From contig NZ_CP093301.1 in assembly GCF_024362785.1 (NCBI RefSeq), positions 1,364,001 through 1,428,000 on the forward strand: a DNA stretch of 64,000 bases, given 5' to 3'. The notes below the pieces were generated by a model, which made no database searches, had not been told where the DNA came from, and saw nothing but the letters and a program-made list of their open reading frames with translations. Shown here piece after piece: positions 25,229-58,472 of this stretch. Both the position numbers and the translations under genes were made by a program. The stretch comes from Evansella sp. LMS18. GTDB lineage: Bacteria; Bacillota; Bacilli; Bacillales; Salisediminibacteriaceae. The first letter of the stretch is position 1, and every line of letters begins with the position of its first letter.

Positions 25229-25364
25229 CGTACAACTTTGGGTGCGGTTCGCACAACTTTGTGGGTTAATCGCACGACTTCCGTTGCGGTTCGGACAACT
25301 CCGTAGGTTGAACGCATGACTTCAGATGCGGTTCGCACATTTCCAGAGGACATTCGCACAACTT
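25229..25364. repeat. degenerate tandem array, 21-bp period (CGCACAACTT core)
   Basis: Seven units whose CGCACAACTT-like cores begin at 25229, 25250, 25271, 25292, 25313, 25334 and 25355, exactly 21 bp apart. Intervening bases are GC-rich and variable (often GGTGCGGTT). It lies between convergent genes, just before the shared terminator, and has no coding potential of its own. Confidence 0.85.
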
Positions 25365-37482: not shown

Positions 37483-37498
37483 AGGGGATTCGCTTTTA

Positions 37499-37699
37499 TT
37501 AGGGGATTCTTTTTTCATATTCACCCAGAGAATCTGCACCGGAGTCAGGGACTTCATTGTGCCGAATAAAATCGCCTGTGTGTGGGTATGTTTTTTGTTC
37601 ATGGGCGAGGAGGAGTTCGTCCTGCACGGCTTTTTTGTGGTCTTTTTCTCTTCTTTTGGAAAGGCAGCCTGAATTTTTAGGTTTAAAATGGTACTTCAT
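37499..37699 (-). CDS. small hydrophilic hypothetical protein
   Basis: A 66-residue reading frame, MKYHFKPKNSGCLSKRR at the start and GADSLGEYEKRIP at the end, highly charged and without membrane segments. Its composition is protein-like rather than random, but the ribosome binding site is weak and its end runs into the duplicated terminator sequence. Not recognised. Confidence 0.4.
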   Translation of the reverse strand: MKYHFKPKNSGCLSKRREKDHKKAVQDELLLAHEQKTYPHTGDFIRHNEVPDSGADSLGEYEKRIP

Positions 37700-37776: not shown

Positions 37777-37893
37777 TTTATTGGCTTAGCTGGTTAGGTT
37801 TATTGGCGAAATTTTAATTTTATTGGCGAAATCGGATGGTTTATTGGCGAAATTATATTTTTATTGGCGAAATCGGGTAGTTTATCGGCGAAC
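37777..37893. repeat. degenerate tandem array, ~21-bp period (TTTATTGGCGAAAT core)
   Basis: Six cores of TTTATTGGCGAAAT, with the first G at 37783, 37805, 37825, 37846, 37866 and 37887, i.e. spacings of 20-22 bp. Located in the gap between the alcohol dehydrogenase and YciI genes. The core differs from those of the arrays at 25229 and 52698. Confidence 0.75.
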
Positions 37894-38241: not shown

Positions 38242-38392
38242 TTATGGATGTGCCCCCTTTTACGTTTTATCCTATTTAGGTCCAGCCAGGGTACCTCCGT
38301 GCTGGTTGCGTTACCTCTCACTCTATTTTTTCCCGCATGCGGGTATGCGAGACGCTATCCAATTCGTTTCAGCAGCTTTTTTTATAAAACAA

Positions 38393-39454
38393 TCAACCAA
38401 GCTTTCGCACACGGCTGATGATTTCGTCCGATACTTCTTTCGTCGTATGGCTGCCGCCCACATCAGGTGTGAGGAAGCCGTCCCGGGTCACATTCTCAAT
38501 AATCTCCAGGAGCTCACGCCCAAGTTCTTCCTCGCCAAAATGGTCAAGCATCATCTTGCCTGTCCAAATCTGCCCCACCGGATTTGCGATACCTTTTCCG
38601 ATGATATCGGGGGCCGACCCGTGCACCGGCTCGAACATGGACGGATATTTCCCATTCACATTTATATTTGCCGCCGGGGCTATACCGATGCTTCCCATAA
38701 TTGCAGCTCCAACATCCGTAAGTATGTCTCCAAATAAATTGCTTGCAACAATTACATCAAATTTTTCCGGGCGTGTTACAAAAAACGCGGCAAGAGCATC
38801 GATATGCTGGGAGTCTGTTTCAAAGCCAGGATAATCTCTCGCCACTTCTTCAAAAACCTTATCCCAGAAAGGCATAGAATAGACAATTCCATTGGACTTT
38901 GTTGCGCTTGTAACATGCTTTTTCCGCCTGGAGGCCAGTTCAAATGCATACCTGATTGCCCGTTCTGTGCCTTTCCTTGAAAAAACAGCATTCTGTATAG
39001 CAATTTCATCTTCGCCCTGGTGGATTGTTCCTCCAATCGAGCTGTACTCTCCTTCGCTGTTTTCTCTGACAACAATAAGGTCAAAATCCTTCGGGTTAGC
39101 CAGCGGGGACTGAATACCTTCAAACCTTTTAGCCGGTCGGACATTAATCACCTGCTCAAACTCACGGCGAATTTTTATCAACAATCCCCAGAGAGAAATG
39201 TGATCCGGGACAAGCTCTTTATTTCCAACTGCGCCGAGGAAAACAGCGTCAAAATTCCTGAGCCTGTCCAACCCATCTTCCGGCATCATTGTTCCATGTT
39301 CAAGATAGTACTCGCAGCTCCATGGAAAATTTTCAAACTCAAACCGTATTCCTCCGTGAACTTCTGCCAGCGCATTCAAAACTTCAGAAGCTGCCGGTAC
39401 TACTTCTTTTCCAACACCATCTCCTGGGATATTAGCTATCTTTAAAACTTTCAA
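38393..39454 (-). CDS. tartrate dehydrogenase / D-malate dehydrogenase (TtuC/DmlA/YcsA type)
   Basis: A 353-residue NAD-dependent decarboxylating dehydrogenase of the isopropylmalate family. It has IPGDGVGKEVVPAASEVL, SLWGLLIKIRREFEQ (the tartrate-branch replacement of the leucine loop), VVRENSEGEY, SNLFGDILTDVGAA and EPVHGSAPDI. Substrates in the family are D-malate, tartrate and related acids. The start is a TTG at 39454 with AGGAG 7 bases upstream. Its upstream region is the palindrome array, which begins 55 bp before the start codon, so promoter and array must overlap or lie very close. Confidence 0.88.
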   Translation of the reverse strand: MKVLKIANIPGDGVGKEVVPAASEVLNALAEVHGGIRFEFENFPWSCEYYLEHGTMMPEDGLDRLRNFDAVFLGAVGNKELVPDHISLWGLLIKIRREFEQVINVRPAKRFEGIQSPLANPKDFDLIVVRENSEGEYSSIGGTIHQGEDEIAIQNAVFSRKGTERAIRYAFELASRRKKHVTSATKSNGIVYSMPFWDKVFEEVARDYPGFETDSQHIDALAAFFVTRPEKFDVIVASNLFGDILTDVGAAIMGSIGIAPAANINVNGKYPSMFEPVHGSAPDIIGKGIANPVGQIWTGKMMLDHFGEEELGRELLEIIENVTRDGFLTPDVGGSHTTKEVSDEIISRVRKLG

Positions 39455-39509
39455 TATAATTCTCCTCTCTTTGTTTCACACAAAACTCTCTTTTGCTTTA
39501 CTTCCTTTT

Positions 39510-40699
39510 GCAGTCTATAGACTGCATTTTTCCCCTACCCATTTAACCGGCTATAGCCGGTATTTTTTCCTCCGGCCCTTTTGCTGTCTATAGACTGCAT
39601 TTTGCCCGGCTCCTTTTCACCGGCTATTTTTGCAGTCTATAGACTGCATTTTTCCTCGGGTCCTTTTTCACCGGCTATAGACGGTATTTTCCTCCGGCCC
39701 TTTTTTGCAGTCTATAGACTGCATTTTTCCCCCGCCCTTTTTCCACCGGCTATAGACGGTATTTTTTCCCCTGGTCCATTTCGCAGTCTATAGACTGCAT
39801 TTTCCCGGCTCCTTTTTCACCGGCTGTAGACGGTATTTTTTCCTCAGGCTCTTTTTGCAGTCTATAGACTGCATTTTTCCACGTTCCTTTTTCACCGGCT
39901 ATAGACGGTATTTTTTCCTCCGGTCCTTTTGCAGTCTATAGACTTCATTTTACTCCCGGTTCCTTTTTCACCGGCTATAGACGGTATTTTTTCCTCAGGC
40001 CCTTTTTGCAGTCTATAGACTTCATTTTTCCCTCGCCCTTTTTTCACCGGCTATAGCCGGTATTTTTTCCCCTGGTCCATTTTGCAGTCTATAGACTGCA
40101 TTTTCCCGGCTCCTTTTTCACCGGCTGTAGCCGGTATTTTTTCCTCAGGCTCTTTTTGCAGTCTATAGACTGCATTTTTCCCTCTGACTCTTTTGGCTGT
40201 CTATAGACTGCATTTTTTCCTCAGGCCCTTTTGCAGTCTATAGACTGCATTTTCCACGTTCCTTTTTCACCGGCTATAGACGGTTTTTTTTCCTCAGGCC
40301 CTTTTTGCAGTCTATAGACTTCATTTTGCTCCCGGTTCATTTTTCACCGGCTATAGCGGGTATTTTTCCTCCGGCTCTTTTTGCAGTCTATAGACTGCAT
40401 TTTTTCCCTTGCCCTTTTTCACCGTCTATAGACGGTATTTTTTCCTCTGGCCCTTTTTGCAGTCTATAGACTGCATTTTACTCCCGGTTCCTTTTTCACC
40501 GGCTATAGCCGGTATTTTTTCCTCTGGCCCTTTTTGCAGTCTATAGACTGCATTTTTCCCTTGCCCTTTTCACCGGCTATAGCCGGTATTTTTTTCCTCT
40601 GACCCTTTTGCAGTCTATAGACTGCATTTTCTCCTCGCCCTTTTTTCACCGGCTATAGCCGGTATTTTTCCCCCGCCCTTTTAGCAGTCTATAGACTGC
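39510..40699. repeat. array of 33 alternating short palindromes of two types
   Basis: Type A is TGCAGTCTATAGACTGCA (18 copies, 13 with the perfect 16-bp core); type B is ACCGGCTATAGCCGGT (15 copies, 5 perfect). They alternate A-B-A-B at about 37 bp, except A-A-A near 40161-40249. Imperfect B copies mostly read GACGGT in the right arm; one copy (40421) has both arms changed, restoring symmetry. One B is halved (39620). Each is preceded by C/T-rich CCCTTTTT and followed by ATTTTT on the plus strand, so all have one orientation. Spacers are similar, not unique, so this is not CRISPR. It fills the gap between the divergent dehydrogenase and nirK genes. Confidence 0.95.
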
Positions 40700-40889
40700 A
40701 TTTTTCCCATGCTCGTTTTCTATGTCCAGGATACCAGGCGGCTGGATATGTATTACAGTTATTTGGCTTACGCTTTCTCCTTCCTATTCCCCCTAAACTT
40801 ATTCTGTATATTTACTATTTTCCCCTTCAATATAGAGTTAAGAATTTTCTGTGAATAACCCTTGAACGACATGTGAACGTGTTAACAAA

Positions 40890-40905
40890 GGTGATTCAAA
40901 TCACC
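40890..40905. promoter_or_regulatory. Fnr/Dnr-type box of nirK
   Basis: GGTGATTCAAATCACC is a 16-bp palindrome matching the GTGAT-N4-ATCAC class. A TATATT at 40927-40932 is a good -10, predicting a start near 40939 and placing the box at -41.5, the classic class II activator position. A second near-match, TGTGAACGTGTTAACA, is at 40872-40887. Confidence 0.65.
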
Positions 40906-40938
40906 AAGAATACTACCCCGCCCCTATATATTAAAGGT

Positions 40939-41108
40939 AAGGAAAGCGTTCCTTAAATAAAGGCTTTGTTAAAAAACAGGATGTTTTTCAGCCTTCACTT
41001 AAAACTGAGCGCAGCGGAATCCAGTTGAAAATTGGATTAAGGGAGCTCAAGCATATAAGCTACATTCCACTTTAACAGAGCCTAATAAAATGGTAGGAGT
41101 GATCGAGT
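40939..41108 (+). other. long nirK leader
   Basis: About 170 nt separate the predicted start from the nirK ATG. A dyad AAGGAA/TTCCTT lies at 40939-40954. No coding sequence is seen; the leader could take part in mRNA stability. Confidence 0.35.
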
Positions 41109-42218
41109 ATGTCATATGCTAAATGGTTTAAGATTTTACTTGCCGGAATTATATTGATGATGCTCTCTGTCGCCTGTAGTAATGCTGAAGAAACCAGTAA
41201 ATCCGATGACACTGTTTATGCCGCTGAGGAAAACAACGAGAACGGAAATGAAAATGGCAACGAGAATGACGCTGAAGCTGCTGAAGAAAATCATGAAGCC
41301 GATGGTGAATACACACGAAACGGCATGCCGGTATTCGCGGCACATGATGGACTACACCAGGAACCAGTACCAGTTATCGTGGAACGTACCGGAGAAAATG
41401 AAGTATATGTGGAAATGACATCTCAGATTACAGATATCGAAATAGACAAGGGACTTCTTTACAAAGCTTGGACGTTTAACGGCGAAGCCCCTGGTCCCCT
41501 CGTAGTGGTTAACGAAGGAGATACAATCACTTTTAACTTAAAGAACCATGACCCTGCTATCCCTCACTCCATGGATTTCCATGCAGTGCACGCAAGCCCG
41601 AAACGTGACTTTGCCGATGTAATGCCTAATGAAGAAGGCACCTTCACTTACACAGCGAACTATCCGGGAGTCTTCATGTACCACTGTGGAACACCTTCCG
41701 TACTGGCACACATTGCTAACGGAATGCACGGGGTAATCATTGTAATGCCGAAGGACGGCTATCCAACAGATGACGAAGTGGACCGCGAGTTCGTACTCAT
41801 TCAAAACGAATGGTACCAGTATAACGACTTAGATGACATGACAAACGGCGTTCCGAGCCAGGTGGTATTCTCCGCAAAAGCACTGGAAGAAGGAGATATT
41901 AACACAAACGGCACAACATACGACCTGAAAGAAGCACCGCTGCAGGCTAAAGTTGGCGAGAAGATACGTATGTATATCAACAACGTAGGCCCGAATGAAA
42001 TCAGCTCCTTTCACGTAGTAGGAACAGTAATGGACGATGTATATGTGGACGGCAACCCGGAAAACCATATGAAAGGGCTCCAGACGGTGATTCTTCCTGC
42101 CAGCGGCGGAGCGGTTGTTGAATTCACGGTAAAAGAGCCTGGAACTTACCCAATCGTAACTCACCAGTTCAACCATGTTGAAAAAGGTGCTGCAGCTCTG
42201 CTTGAAGTAACAGAGTAA
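41109..42218 (+). CDS. nirK: copper-containing nitrite reductase NirK (lipoprotein)
   Basis: A 369-residue two-cupredoxin enzyme reducing nitrite to NO. A lipoprotein signal ends at VACS (Cys about 23) and is followed by an acidic, Asn/Glu-rich linker of ~45 residues, so the enzyme is anchored outside the membrane as in other Gram-positives. Copper ligands: HSMDFH (type 1 and type 2 His with the catalytic Asp), YHCGTPSVLAHIANGMHG (type 2 His, type 1 Cys, His, Met), and a C-terminal His in THQFNH. SSFHVVGTVMDDVY marks the class typical of Bacilli. No nor or nos genes are adjacent. Confidence 0.92.
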   Translation: MSYAKWFKILLAGIILMMLSVACSNAEETSKSDDTVYAAEENNENGNENGNENDAEAAEENHEADGEYTRNGMPVFAAHDGLHQEPVPVIVERTGENEVYVEMTSQITDIEIDKGLLYKAWTFNGEAPGPLVVVNEGDTITFNLKNHDPAIPHSMDFHAVHASPKRDFADVMPNEEGTFTYTANYPGVFMYHCGTPSVLAHIANGMHGVIIVMPKDGYPTDDEVDREFVLIQNEWYQYNDLDDMTNGVPSQVVFSAKALEEGDINTNGTTYDLKEAPLQAKVGEKIRMYINNVGPNEISSFHVVGTVMDDVYVDGNPENHMKGLQTVILPASGGAVVEFTVKEPGTYPIVTHQFNHVEKGAAALLEVTE

Positions 42219-42246
42219 ATAAATATAATACTGCCACCCCCCTTTT

Positions 42247-42296
42247 GAAAAACCCGTCCTCCCGCTTATCCCCCCAAGCGGACAGGGCGGGTTTTT
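42247..42296. terminator. bidirectional terminator between nirK and glycerate kinase
   Basis: AAACCCG...CGGGTTT with inner CCGCTT/AAGCGG arms forms a long hairpin with T runs on both strands. Confidence 0.85.
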
Positions 42297-42349
42297 GTAT
42301 GCTGAAAAAGTTGGTTTCCTTCAATGTGAATGTACAGCAGCAAGACTGA

Positions 42350-43519
42350 TTACTCCCCCTTAATAAAACCGCCTAATCTGTAAGCTCCAGTATAAAGTGT
42401 CTTCAGTGTTTGCCGGCATGCCAGCTCAAGGAGTTTTTCCCCTTGACTCATTGCTTGCTGCAGCGGGATAATTTCATGGGTAAGAGGCACCGGAATCAGA
42501 TTTTCTTCATGATATGTTCCTTTTATAAATGACTCAGACACAGAACCGCCGAACAATAGCACAATTTTATTTTTTTCTAAGGCCGTCCTTGCGACTCCCA
42601 TTGGCCCTTTCCCATAAAATGTTTGTTCGTCCAGCTTGCCTTCCCCGCTTATAACCAGGTCCGCCCATTCAATTTTCTCTTCCAGGCTGGTCAGTTCAGC
42701 TATCAATTCGAACCCATTTTTCATCTCCCCGTTCAGATAGGACATAAGGGAAAAACCGAATCCCCCGGCAGCCCCAGCTCCAGGAGCATCTCTGTAATCT
42801 TTGCCTGTTGCTTTAACAGTTAAATCAGCAAACTGCTTCATGCCATTTTCGTAAAATGGGATTTCTTCTTTCAGGACACCTTTCTGCGGCCCGAAAACTG
42901 CAATTGCTCCCTTTTCCCCAAGAAGGGGATTTTTAACATCAGACGCTATAACCAGCTTTACTTTTTTAACCCTGCCATCCAGATTTCCAGTATGTATACG
43001 GTGTATTTCTTCCAGCCTTCCTGAAACCCTCTGAATCAGTTGTCCCTTTTCGTCAAGAAACTCACAGCCAAGCGCTTGAAGGAAACCTGCACCTCCATCT
43101 GCAGTGGCGCTTCCGCCAATGCCAAGGACGATTTCTTCCGCCCCTTTATCAAGAGCTGCTTTCATGATGATTCCTGTTCCATGAGTAGTAGCCACTGAAG
43201 GATTCAGTTCCGTTCCTGAAAGAAGAGTAATTCCTGAAGCGGCTGCAGTTTCAATTACCGCTAGTTTCCTGTCTCCGTTCCAGGCAAAGAAACCTTCTGT
43301 TTTTCTCCCTATTGGGTCCACTGTCTTTACCGTCACCTTTTCCGCCTGAAGAGGGGCTAACAGAGCATCGACTGTTCCTTCACCACCATCGGCCATTGGG
43401 ACCATCTCAACTTTTGCTCCGGTAAACGGGCTGTTCCTTATTCCACTGTGGATTGCTTCAGCAGCCTCTGCACTTGTCATAGACCCTTTAAAAGAATCCG
43501 GTGCCACCAGAATATTCAT
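42350..43519 (-). CDS. glxK: glycerate kinase (GarK/GlxK family)
   Basis: A 389-residue kinase phosphorylating D-glycerate. It begins MNILVAPDSFKGSMTSAEAA and has PMADGGEGTVDAL, GIGGSATADGGAGFLQALG, PGAGAAGGFGF and SGEGKLDEQTFYGKGP, all standard. It links glycerate, formed by hydroxypyruvate or tartronate-semialdehyde reduction, to glycolysis, matching the hydroxy-acid theme of the window. The final ~15 residues (TGAYRLGGFIKGE) exceed the usual end slightly. Confidence 0.92.
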   Translation of the reverse strand: MNILVAPDSFKGSMTSAEAAEAIHSGIRNSPFTGAKVEMVPMADGGEGTVDALLAPLQAEKVTVKTVDPIGRKTEGFFAWNGDRKLAVIETAAASGITLLSGTELNPSVATTHGTGIIMKAALDKGAEEIVLGIGGSATADGGAGFLQALGCEFLDEKGQLIQRVSGRLEEIHRIHTGNLDGRVKKVKLVIASDVKNPLLGEKGAIAVFGPQKGVLKEEIPFYENGMKQFADLTVKATGKDYRDAPGAGAAGGFGFSLMSYLNGEMKNGFELIAELTSLEEKIEWADLVISGEGKLDEQTFYGKGPMGVARTALEKNKIVLLFGGSVSESFIKGTYHEENLIPVPLTHEIIPLQQAMSQGEKLLELACRQTLKTLYTGAYRLGGFIKGE

Positions 43520-43944: not shown

Positions 43945-43997
43945 AGTTAATTAATATAGTATAATACGGAAGCGATTTTTGGTAAGGGCTCATCCCC

Positions 43998-44068
43998 TAT
44001 AAAGTGAACCTTTAATCAGTGGGTGTATTTATCCCCCACTGATTGTTAATTGAACCAATCGGGATAAA
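43998..44068 (-). repeat. dispersed ~70-bp hairpin element, copy 1
   Basis: Contains the inverted repeat AATCAGTGGG / CCCACTGATT (44014-44044) flanked by TATAAAGTGAACC on one side and TTGAACCAATCGGGATAAA on the other. Almost the same sequence occurs at 53187-53254 in the opposite orientation. This copy lies 10 bp beyond the ugd stop codon. Confidence 0.85.
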
Positions 44069-49160: not shown

Positions 49161-49679
49161 AGTCAGTTCTCCTTTTATAGAAATGTATAATTAATTCAAT
49201 TCCGGCTTTGTTAATAGAATCGGTGTTACTTTACTGAAAAGCGTCCCTCTGATTTCAATAAATTTGTCGTCTCCCGTTAAAATCAGCTGATAAAATAACA
49301 CATTCTGTTGATTCAATAAAAGAATACTTATCATCCCCCTTGTTAATTATGAATGTCCAGTGCAACGTAAAAAGTTTAAGAAAGGGCTTTCATAAAATAT
49401 GAAAAGCTCGTCTTCTCTTTTTACAAACGCATCTTTCAAACTGATTATAGACGGCTGAAGTTAGTTTATCTAGTGAACTAACAAAGTTTTCTGAATACTA
49501 TGGATTATGCCTATCTTACTGAGTTAAAATCCACTACCATTGGAATAAAAGGATTTTTAAAAATAAGGAAATGTTCCTAAACGACAGTTTAAGGCGGTAA
49601 TACAGTACTGCGAATTATTTTGGAAAGCACTCTGGAATATGGTTAACTTAGCCTGAACGGATGGATATCGTCTGGGAAA
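49161..49679. other. long gap upstream of the xylanase gene
   Basis: About 520 bp, AT-rich. It holds the XylR-like palindrome at 49460 and a weak cre-like TGAAAGCCCTTTCT near 49380-49394 on the minus strand. No gene is supported. Confidence 0.4.
49460..49482. promoter_or_regulatory. XylR-like operator
   Basis: GTTAGTT and AACTAAC are perfect outer arms of a 23-bp dyad, resembling the Bacillus xyl operator (TTAGTTTG...CAAACTAA) though shorter inside. Placement upstream of a xylanase supports the call. Confidence 0.4.
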
Positions 49680-50058
49680 GGGCATGCTGGGCACTCCCGC
49701 ATGCCCGAACTGCCTAAAATTCACCGCGAAAGGGAACGCTGGAATCTCCCGCATGCCCGAACTTCTGAAAAATCACCTCGAAAGGGAACGCTGGAACCTC
49801 CAGCATGCCCGAACTACCAAAAAATCACCTCGAAAGGGAACGTTGGAACCTCCAGCATGCCCGAATTGCCAAAAAATCACCTCGAAAGGGAACGCTGGAA
49901 TCTCCCGCATGCCCGAACTTCTGAAAAATCACCTCGAAAGGGAACGCTGGAACCTCCCGCATGCCCGAACTGCCTAAAATTCACCGCGAAAGGGAACGCT
50001 AGAACCTCCCGCATGCCCGAACTGCCAAAAAATCATCGAGAAAGGGAACGCTGGCGCC
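49680..50058. repeat. tandem array, 52-bp unit
   Basis: Seven units starting at 49680, 49732, 49784, 49836, 49888, 49940 and 49992 and a partial one at 50044, at exactly 52-bp steps. Units begin GGGAACGCTGGAACCTCC, contain GCATGCCCGAACTGCC and end in ATCACCTCGAAA. Two slightly different unit types recur, as from duplication of blocks. 52 is not a multiple of 3, so open frames through it are by-products. The last partial unit forms a GGGAACG/CGTTCCC hairpin to 50075. Confidence 0.92.
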
Positions 50059-52697: not shown

Positions 52698-52899
52698 TTT
52701 CGAGAATAGAGGGCCTGGTTTCGAGAATTAGACTCTGGTTCGAGAATTGGCCACCTGATTTCGAGAATGGACCTCCTCATATCGAGAATAAGCCGGTCAA
52801 TTTCGCGAATTCGAACCGCCGTTTCGCGAATAGACTAACAGGTTGCGCAAATAGACAGCCTCATTTCGCATACAGACCACTTGATTTAGCACACAGACC
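52698..52899. repeat. degenerate tandem array, 21-bp period (TTTCGAGAAT core)
   Basis: Ten units with cores at 52701, 52722, 52741, 52762, 52783, 52804, 52825, 52846, 52867 and 52888; all steps are 21 bp but one (19). Cores drift steadily from TTTCGAGAAT through TTTCGCGAAT to TTTCGCATAC along the array. It lies directly upstream of the activator gene and 240 bp before the divergent sigma-54 promoter. Confidence 0.85.
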
Positions 52900-53153: not shown

Positions 53154-53186
53154 ACCTATTAAAAGTGACAAAACAAAAGCTTCATA

Positions 53187-53254
53187 TTTATCCCGATTTG
53201 TTCAACTAACAATCAGTGGGGGAATCCCCCCACTGATTGAAGGCTCACTTTATA
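53187..53254 (+). repeat. dispersed ~70-bp hairpin element, copy 2 (mRNA leader)
   Basis: A 13-bp perfect stem, CAATCAGTGGGGG (53210-53222) with its complement (53227-53239), loop AATC. Flanks TTTATCCCGATTTGTTCAA and GGCTCACTTTATA match copy 1 read on the minus strand. The element ends where the AAGGAGG ribosome binding site of the next gene begins. No T run follows, so it is not a simple terminator. Confidence 0.85.
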
Positions 53255-53267
53255 AGGAGGTGAATAA

Positions 53268-57939: not shown

Positions 57940-58472
57940 ACTCGCTTATTCTCACGTATGCTCACTCGTTCATCCTGGCACCTGGGGACCGGGTTCGCTT
58001 GTACCAGGTTCATCGGTGCCACGTTGAGTAGCTTCCTCATTCTTGCTTATTCTCGCGTATGCTCCCTTATTTATCCTGGCACTTTAGTTCCAGGAACGAT
58101 GGTTCCAGGAACCTGGGTGCCATGTTGACGAGCTCCCCCTTCCTCCCTTATCCTCACGCATGCTCGCTTATTCATCCTGGCACTTCGGTTCCAGGAACGA
58201 TGGTTCCAGGAACCTGGGTGCCATGTTGACGAGCTCCCCCTTCCTCCCTTATCCTCACGCATGCTCGCTCATTCATCCTGGCACTTTGGTTCCAGGAACG
58301 TACTCCCTTTTTCTCACGTATACTCCCTCATTCATACTGGCACCTCGGTTCCAGGAACCAGGGGGACACGTTGATCAACTCCCCCATACTCCCTTTTTCT
58401 CACGTATACTCCCTCATTCCTCCTGGCACCTCGGTTCCAGGAACGATGGTTCCAGGAACCTGGGGGACACGT
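57940..58472. repeat. tandem array, ~101-bp unit carrying a long hairpin
   Basis: Six units; CATCCTGGCAC-like cores begin at about 57971, 58072, 58173, 58274, 58333 and 58420, so the first four steps are 101 bp and later units are shortened. Full units hold GTTCCAGGAAC twice, separated by GATG, flanked by TGGCAC and GTGCCA, which together fold into a ~45-nt stem-loop. A second element of the unit is CTTATCCTCACGCATGCTC. It lies between convergent hyuC-like and gabD genes. Confidence 0.88.

What the first reader, a model, noticed from the sequence alone, without database searches (positions are those of the whole stretch)
39510..40699. 33-copy array of two alternating palindromes, BIME-like, between two divergent genes
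Seen directly: 18 copies of a GCAGTCTATAGACTGC palindrome alternate with 15 copies of ACCGGCTATAGCCGGT over 1.2 kb, all with the same pyrimidine-rich flanks and a T run on the plus strand. Both share a central CTATAG. Most defective B copies carry the same right-arm change, and one copy has the matching left-arm change, so symmetry may be under selection or copies may convert one another. Alternation of two palindrome types is the logic of enterobacterial BIMEs (REP units), which I do not know in this form from Bacillaceae. As RNA each unit is a 6-7 bp stem, UAUA loop and U run, i.e. a minimal terminator; as DNA each is a dimer binding site. Possibilities: protein-loading or anchoring array, serial terminator/insulator, or a mobile palindrome family with a helper enzyme elsewhere.
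Basis: partly seen in the sequence, partly recalled or inferred. Interest (0 to 1): 0.88.

Follow-up and report, generated by a model that had tools for sequence, protein, structure and literature searches.

The report
One-locus palindrome minisatellite in Evansella
A stretch of about 1.2 kb between two divergent genes is a tandem array of 33 short palindromes of two matching kinds; in the genomes searched it was found at this place only, and the sister species has a single degenerate copy there, so it looks like a locally grown repeat array rather than a mobile or dispersed element.

Summary
In detail: 33 palindromes (18 A, 15 B, one B truncated) in 39510-40699, 30 of 32 neighbours alternating. 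The BIME/REP reading fails: both palindromes occur only in this array in the 4.90-Mb genome, in none of the other genomes searched, and all copies point the same way. The sister species Evansella clarkii has the same gene pair with one diverged, non-folding monomer at that spot. Block duplications show local tandem duplication of an A-B dimer. Best reading: a species-private palindromic minisatellite in a genus where tandem arrays are common. The unusual part: A and B differ by exactly three compensated base pairs, and near-identical duplicated blocks differ repeatedly at the same arm positions, which make or break symmetry. I infer arm-to-arm (quasipalindrome) template switching, a mutational way to keep symmetry without selection; direction of these changes is not polarised, and short gene conversion is not excluded. 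Protein-binding or terminator roles remain possible. Whether the array was gained here or lost in E. clarkii lacks an outgroup.

The parts
39510..40699 (+). array of 33 palindromic units, A (GCAGTCTATAGACTGC) and B (ACCGGCTATAGCCGGT); 15 A-B dimers of 73-77 bp (one truncated to 49 bp) plus three further A units
39619..39627 (+). truncated B unit (right half missing; the next A unit starts at 39632)
39707..40007 (+). units 7-14, a four-dimer block: units 7-10 are near-duplicated in 15-18, units 11-14 in 21-24 (301-bp higher-order period)
40158..40248 (+). A-A-A run, the one place where two neighbours are of the same type
40421..40436 (+). symmetric intermediate ACCGTCTATAGACGGT (pair 5/12 as in A, the other pairs as in B)
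38393..39454 (-). left neighbour, tartrate dehydrogenase; its TTG start is 55 bp from the array
   Evidence: NCBIfam NF006048, 682 bits, cut-off 501
41109..42218 (+). right neighbour, copper nitrite-reductase-like
   Evidence: TIGR02376, 197.7 bits, below its cut-off of 296.3

Best explanation
It is a locus-private palindromic minisatellite. Shown: one monomer sits at the same place between the same two genes in Evansella clarkii; the window's genome has 33 units there, arranged as A-B dimers with larger block duplications. Inferred: in the lineage of the window a monomer was duplicated, one copy became B through paired changes in both arms, and the A-B dimer then multiplied by replication slippage or unequal exchange. 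Inferred: hairpins formed by the arms let the polymerase copy one arm from the other (quasipalindrome template switching), so that asymmetric units are driven to symmetry and whole pairs switch together. Inferred: the effect on the cell is passive (length and shape of the divergent control region), with no dedicated protein or enzyme.
For: A with up to 1 mismatch: 18 places in the own genome, all in the array; B with up to 2 mismatches: 14 places, all in the array. Exact A in 0 of 34 other family genomes; A plus flank, up to 2 mismatches, in 0 of 396 other genomes drawn from the order. A degenerate A-unit pattern over the GTDB species collection gave one stretch, in E. clarkii. That is the orthologous spot: neighbours 96% and 99% identical as proteins, one monomer between colinear flanks, no N in the stretch. 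Dimer identity peaks at a lag of four, single pairs reach 93-99%. A and B differ at three pairs, all compensated: 2.6e-4 for six random substitutions; covariation score 0.375 against 0.167 shuffled, 0 of 500. In three near-duplicate comparisons 4 of 7 palindrome differences are A/C at B position 12 and 2 are G/T at A position 15. Units 9-10 and 17-18 are identical over 74 bp except for B position 12, both with the rare CTGTAG centre, so that change was very local. Tandem arrays: 10, 13 and 12 per 400 kb sampled in three species; some differ between the sister species. Template switching that makes and mends stems: PMC8794818 (abstract and opening text).
Against: Over the whole array palindromes vary less than linkers (mean pairwise difference 0.023-0.068 against 0.195-0.245; 32/448 against 78/599 substitutions and 3 against 59 gap columns at lag 122), which a purely neutral array would not predict. 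Two measures are not raised: pairs with a change on both sides (3, 370 of 500 shuffles reach it) and further pair types (3 against 4.7 shuffled, all 500 reach it); its shuffles do not correct for shared descent. The changes are not polarised: some may break symmetry rather than restore it, and in unit 24 a neighbouring change breaks pair 4/13. Short conversion from other B copies can explain them too. Gain against loss is open. No strain-level copy-number data.
Confidence: 0.64

Rival explanations
1. Multimerised operator: A and B are 16-bp dimer sites of one or two regulators, amplified next to the tartrate dehydrogenase start, where they titrate or cooperatively load the protein.
For: Twofold symmetry and near-constant core; palindromes less variable than linkers over the whole array; the array begins 55 bp from the start codon.
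Against: The sites were found nowhere else in the genome; the E. clarkii monomer has three broken pairs and does not fold; in near-duplicates palindromes differ about as much as linkers (7/160 against 11/216).
Confidence: 0.15
2. Serial intrinsic terminator or transcription insulator: a unit is a 6-7 bp stem, a 4-nt loop and a U run in plus-strand RNA.
For: 17 of 19 terminator-like sites in 38300-42400 are array units; 3.7 expected in the region. Three plus-strand units folded at -10, -10.3 and -8.2 kcal/mol.
Against: Only rightward transcripts would be stopped, and both neighbours are read away from the array; promoter-like sites are at chance level (8 against 5.8, sd 2.3); the E. clarkii monomer does not fold (-1.8 kcal/mol).
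Confidence: 0.12
3. The array is ancestral and was lost in E. clarkii by contraction to one decayed unit, rather than gained in the window's lineage.
For: The linkers are diverse, so the array is not very young; no outgroup fixes the direction.
Against: 0 of 8 other genus genomes match GTCTATAGACNNNATTTT, but this is weak: the E. clarkii monomer also fails that pattern, and apart from G004 no genome shows close relatives of both genes on one contig.
Confidence: 0.15
4. BIME/REP-like mobile palindromes spread by a Y1 (RAYT) transposase.
For: Two palindrome types alternate at regular spacing; four Y1_Tnp matches in the genome.
Against: One locus only; one orientation; nearest Y1_Tnp about 86 kb away; one of the two Y1 loci read has a different, dispersed hairpin near it.
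Confidence: 0.02

Closest known systems
Bacterial minisatellites / VNTR loci (kind recalled)
   Same: Head-to-tail units at one locus, copy-number difference between sister species, block duplications
   Different: Units are perfect or near-perfect palindromes, and two compensated palindrome types alternate as a higher-order dimer
REP/BIME (PMC2817692, PMC3733652: abstracts, and passages of the second)
   Same: Short extragenic palindromes, regular spacing, two types in alternation
   Different: Single locus, one orientation, no Y1 transposase nearby, monomer at the same locus in the sister species
Quasipalindrome / template-switch mutation (PMC8794818 abstract and opening text; PMC7202029 search listing only)
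   Same: Compensated changes and recurrent differences at positions that make or break arm symmetry
   Different: Here inferred from units of one tandem array; not measured
Intrinsic terminators
   Same: Short stem, 4-nt loop, U run
   Different: Dozens in series between divergent genes; may be incidental

Membership tests
REP/BIME | many dispersed copies (usually more than 100 per genome) | tested here: not met
   all A and B matches lie in one array; criterion from the abstract of PMC2817692
REP/BIME | regular spacing | tested here: met
   36-39 bp between unit starts, with one exception of 13 bp
REP/BIME | alternating orientation of units | tested here: not met
   the palindromes are symmetric, but the T run that follows them is on the plus strand throughout
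REP/BIME | GTAG or CGTC tag at one end of the hairpin | tested here: not met
   by inspection: T-rich before, ATTTT (once TTTTT) after the palindrome; criterion from the abstract of PMC3733652
REP/BIME | rayt gene flanked by the repeats | tested here: not met
   four Y1_Tnp matches, nearest at 1490811, about 86 kb from the array, and A and B occur nowhere else
Minisatellite / VNTR | tandem head-to-tail units of about 10-100 bp at one locus | tested here: met
Minisatellite / VNTR | copy number differs between relatives | tested here: met
   33 units against one monomer in the sister species
Minisatellite / VNTR | copy number differs between strains of one species | not testable with these tools
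   one genome per species is held
CRISPR array | unique spacers between repeats | tested here: not met
   linkers recur (after units 9 and 17, 13 and 27, 10 and 18, 26 and 28)
CRISPR array | cas genes | not tested
   not searched
Intrinsic terminator | stem-loop plus U tract | tested here: met
   17 array sites
Intrinsic terminator | ends a transcript in vivo | not testable with these tools
   no RNA data
Template-switch (quasipalindrome) mutation | changes copy one arm onto the other | tested here: inconclusive
   pattern fits, but direction is not polarised and short gene conversion is not excluded

The most novel reading that the evidence does not exclude
The array is a natural recorder of arm-to-arm template switching: palindromes in a non-coding tandem array evolve by compensated pair changes and repeated symmetry repair through mutation alone, so that covariation, usually read as proof of a selected RNA or protein-site structure, arises without function. 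If instead selection keeps the symmetry, A and B would be a pair of co-evolved sites for lineage-specific DNA-binding proteins.
Probability: 0.33. Interest if true: 0.65.

Novelty: new variant of a known kind. Interest (0 to 1): 0.42.

Why it matters
It offers a monomer and an array at one locus in sister species, and duplicated blocks in which arm changes can be compared. That makes a question testable: does covariation in hairpins need selection, or can replication produce it? It also warns against reading alternating palindromes as BIMEs from anatomy alone.

Tried and rejected
BIME/REP: rejected on distribution, orientation, tags and transposase position. Known RNA family: no match in the window at gathering thresholds. 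tRNA or tmRNA: none in the window. Assembly artefact: judged unlikely (one-contig genome, distinct linkers), not tested on reads. Hairpin units as the general cause of the genus's arrays: not supported as a rule; 7 of the 38 other arrays had a best z at or below -3.9, the 5th percentile of 60 random stretches, and the number of offsets tried differed between arrays and background. Whether the sampled arrays lie between genes was not checked, and at least one looks protein-coding by its 15-bp period. A genus-wide BLAST of the array end gave, outside the array, only weak short matches (best E 0.0265 in the own genome, 0.0297 in G004).

Literature: 41 papers, 20 listed; 12 of 12 listed; Evansella and repeat: 8 of 8 listed; none; 34 papers, 10 listed; 5 of 5 listed. 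No listed title deals with this array or with tandem palindromes in Evansella. The library lacks most subscription papers, so absence from print is not claimed.

One of the six folds (L060:2680-2720) was aimed at the wrong place and is not used; the E. clarkii monomer was folded. The palindrome count for G004 was inflated by runs of N and is not used. Helical phasing of the spacing was not tested.

Full report
Observation. One search finds 33 units from 39510 to 40699: 18 A and 15 B, one B truncated at 39619. 13 A and 5 B units are exact. Neighbours differ in type in 30 of 32 cases, which 1 of 200,000 shuffles reached. The 31 linkers counted are 20-23 nt long and 85% pyrimidine on the plus strand. 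TRF reports, among others, periods of 37-38, 74-76 and 301 bp, that is unit, dimer and four-dimer block.

Surroundings. The left neighbour, read leftwards, is a tartrate dehydrogenase (38393-39454, NF006048 above its cut-off); the right neighbour, read rightwards, is NirK-like (41109-42218, TIGR02376 at 197.7 bits, below the curated cut-off of 296.3). Neither is read into the array. The stretch upstream of the NirK-like gene holds GGTGATTCAAATCACC (40890-40905), identical in E. clarkii and with its GTGAT-N4-ATCAC frame kept in G006; it is the more likely operator there.

Where else it occurs. In the own genome (one contig, 4,903,744 bases) A with one mismatch gives 18 places and B with two gives 14, all in the array. 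A core-plus-flank pattern is in 0 of 8 other genus genomes, exact A in 0 of 34 other family genomes, A plus flank with two mismatches in 0 of 396 other genomes drawn from the order. A degenerate A-unit pattern scanned over the collection of one genome per GTDB species gave one stretch, in Evansella clarkii DSM 8720 (the tool says that the window's own genome may be left out there). BLAST of the end of the array across the genus gave only weak short matches outside the array, best E 0.0265.

The sister locus. That genome (G004) has both neighbours, 96% and 99% identical as proteins, about 490 bp apart instead of about 1655. The flanks align on both sides and meet over one monomer, GCATTCCATAGACAGC, framed by TTTT and ATTTT. 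It shares 13 of 16 bases with A, each difference breaking one pair, and does not fold (-1.8 kcal/mol, z -0.31); three array units folded on the plus strand gave -10, -10.3 and -8.2 kcal/mol. The stretch holds no N, though the draft has N runs elsewhere; arrays of up to 15 copies are resolved in it, so a collapsed array is unlikely. Gain here or loss there is not settled: in G006, the next closest by these genes, they lie on different contigs.

How it grew. Dimers resemble each other best at a lag of four (mean identity 0.872; other lags from one to eight 0.825-0.855), with single pairs at 93-99%. Units 7-10 against 15-18, 11-14 against 21-24, and 13-14 against 27-28 are near-duplicates. This is the mark of local tandem duplication.

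The symmetry. A and B differ at positions 1, 3, 5, 12, 14 and 16: three complete pairs, all compensated. Six random substitutions leave a perfect palindrome with a probability of 2.6e-4 (uniform substitutions assumed, test chosen after seeing the sequences). On the 32 intact units (15 distinct rows) the stem has 14 cells changed on both sides against 5.9 in shuffles, and a covariation score of 0.375 against 0.167, none of 500 shuffles reaching either; but the number of pairs changed on both sides (3; 370 of 500 reach it) and of further pair types (3 against 4.7; all 500 reach it) is not raised, and the control does not remove shared descent. In the three near-duplicate comparisons palindromes carry 7 differences in 160 sites: four are A/C at B position 12, two G/T at A position 15, one C/G at B position 13. 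Two of these comparisons share units 13 and 14. The differences are not polarised; at position 12 the C state pairs and the A state does not, and unit 24 has lost pair 4/13 beside it. Units 9-10 and 17-18 are identical over 74 bp except for B position 12, with the rare CTGTAG centre in both, so that change was very local. I take arm-to-arm template switching as the likeliest cause (PMC8794818, abstract and opening text seen; PMC7202029, search listing only). Short conversion from another B unit is the main alternative.

Evidence pulling both ways. Over the whole array palindromes vary less than linkers (0.023-0.068 against 0.195-0.245; 32/448 against 78/599 substitutions and 3 against 59 gap columns at lag 122; alignment is uncertain in T and C runs). 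That would fit selection. In the near-duplicates the contrast vanishes (7/160 against 11/216). I do not claim that selection is absent.

Context. Tandem arrays of 2.5 or more copies are common in the three species sampled: 10, 13 and 12 per 400 kb (position relative to genes not checked). Periods of 52, 82, 101, 104, 156, 42 and 20-21 bp occur. Some differ between the sister species: the 52-bp array at 49676-50054 has no counterpart found at the sister locus, while the 101-bp array at 57941 is there with 6.4 instead of 3.6 copies. The A/B array is the longest and has the lowest folding z-scores (-7.9 and -6.5; next -5.7).

What it is not. The REP/BIME criteria of PMC2817692 (abstract) and PMC3733652 (abstract and passages) are not met apart from regular spacing. 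The genome has four Y1_Tnp matches, the nearest about 86 kb away. Of the two Y1 loci read, one has a hairpin repeat about 0.23 kb beyond the match, with 17 matches in the 400-kb sample of the own genome and none in those of G004 and G003. That may be a REP-like family of this genome; a second, inverted copy flanking the gene was not seen. It is unrelated to A and B.

Verdict. A species-private palindromic minisatellite of unusual symmetry: a new variant of a known kind. Its best use is as a test of whether hairpin covariation can arise by mutation alone.

Noticed in passing
window 53181-53265 and 43995-44068: Dispersed hairpin element of about 75 bp (folds at -31.5 kcal/mol); 27 BLAST pieces, three of them in the window, over the window and 800 kb of stretches of the own genome and E. 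clarkii. No Rfam match at gathering threshold in the window.
   Followed up: partly
L143 2051-2125 (own genome, near the Y1_Tnp match at 1490811-1491134): REP-like hairpin GGGTGGTGACAGGCACCACCC near a Y1_Tnp match; 17 matches in 400 kb of the own genome, none in the 400-kb samples of G004 and G003. No second flanking copy seen in L143.
   Followed up: partly
window 49676-50054; L076, L081, L083, L087, L092, L104, L125: Tandem arrays with a period of 52 bp (also 104 and 156) recur at several loci and in three species of the genus; the preferred length is unexplained.
   Followed up: no
window 25232-25339, 37797-37892, 52698-52789; L073, L080, L081: Short arrays with 20-21 or 41-42 bp periods and a conserved half (ATCGGCGAAA, TTCGCACAAC or TTCGAGAA), close to two helical turns.
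   Followed up: no
window 40890-40905: GGTGATTCAAATCACC upstream of the NirK-like gene, frame conserved in three species; resembles a CRP/FNR-type operator (label recalled, not tested).
   Followed up: partly
window 37483-37681 against G004: E. clarkii carries about 3.8 kb where the window has about 0.2 kb.
   Followed up: no
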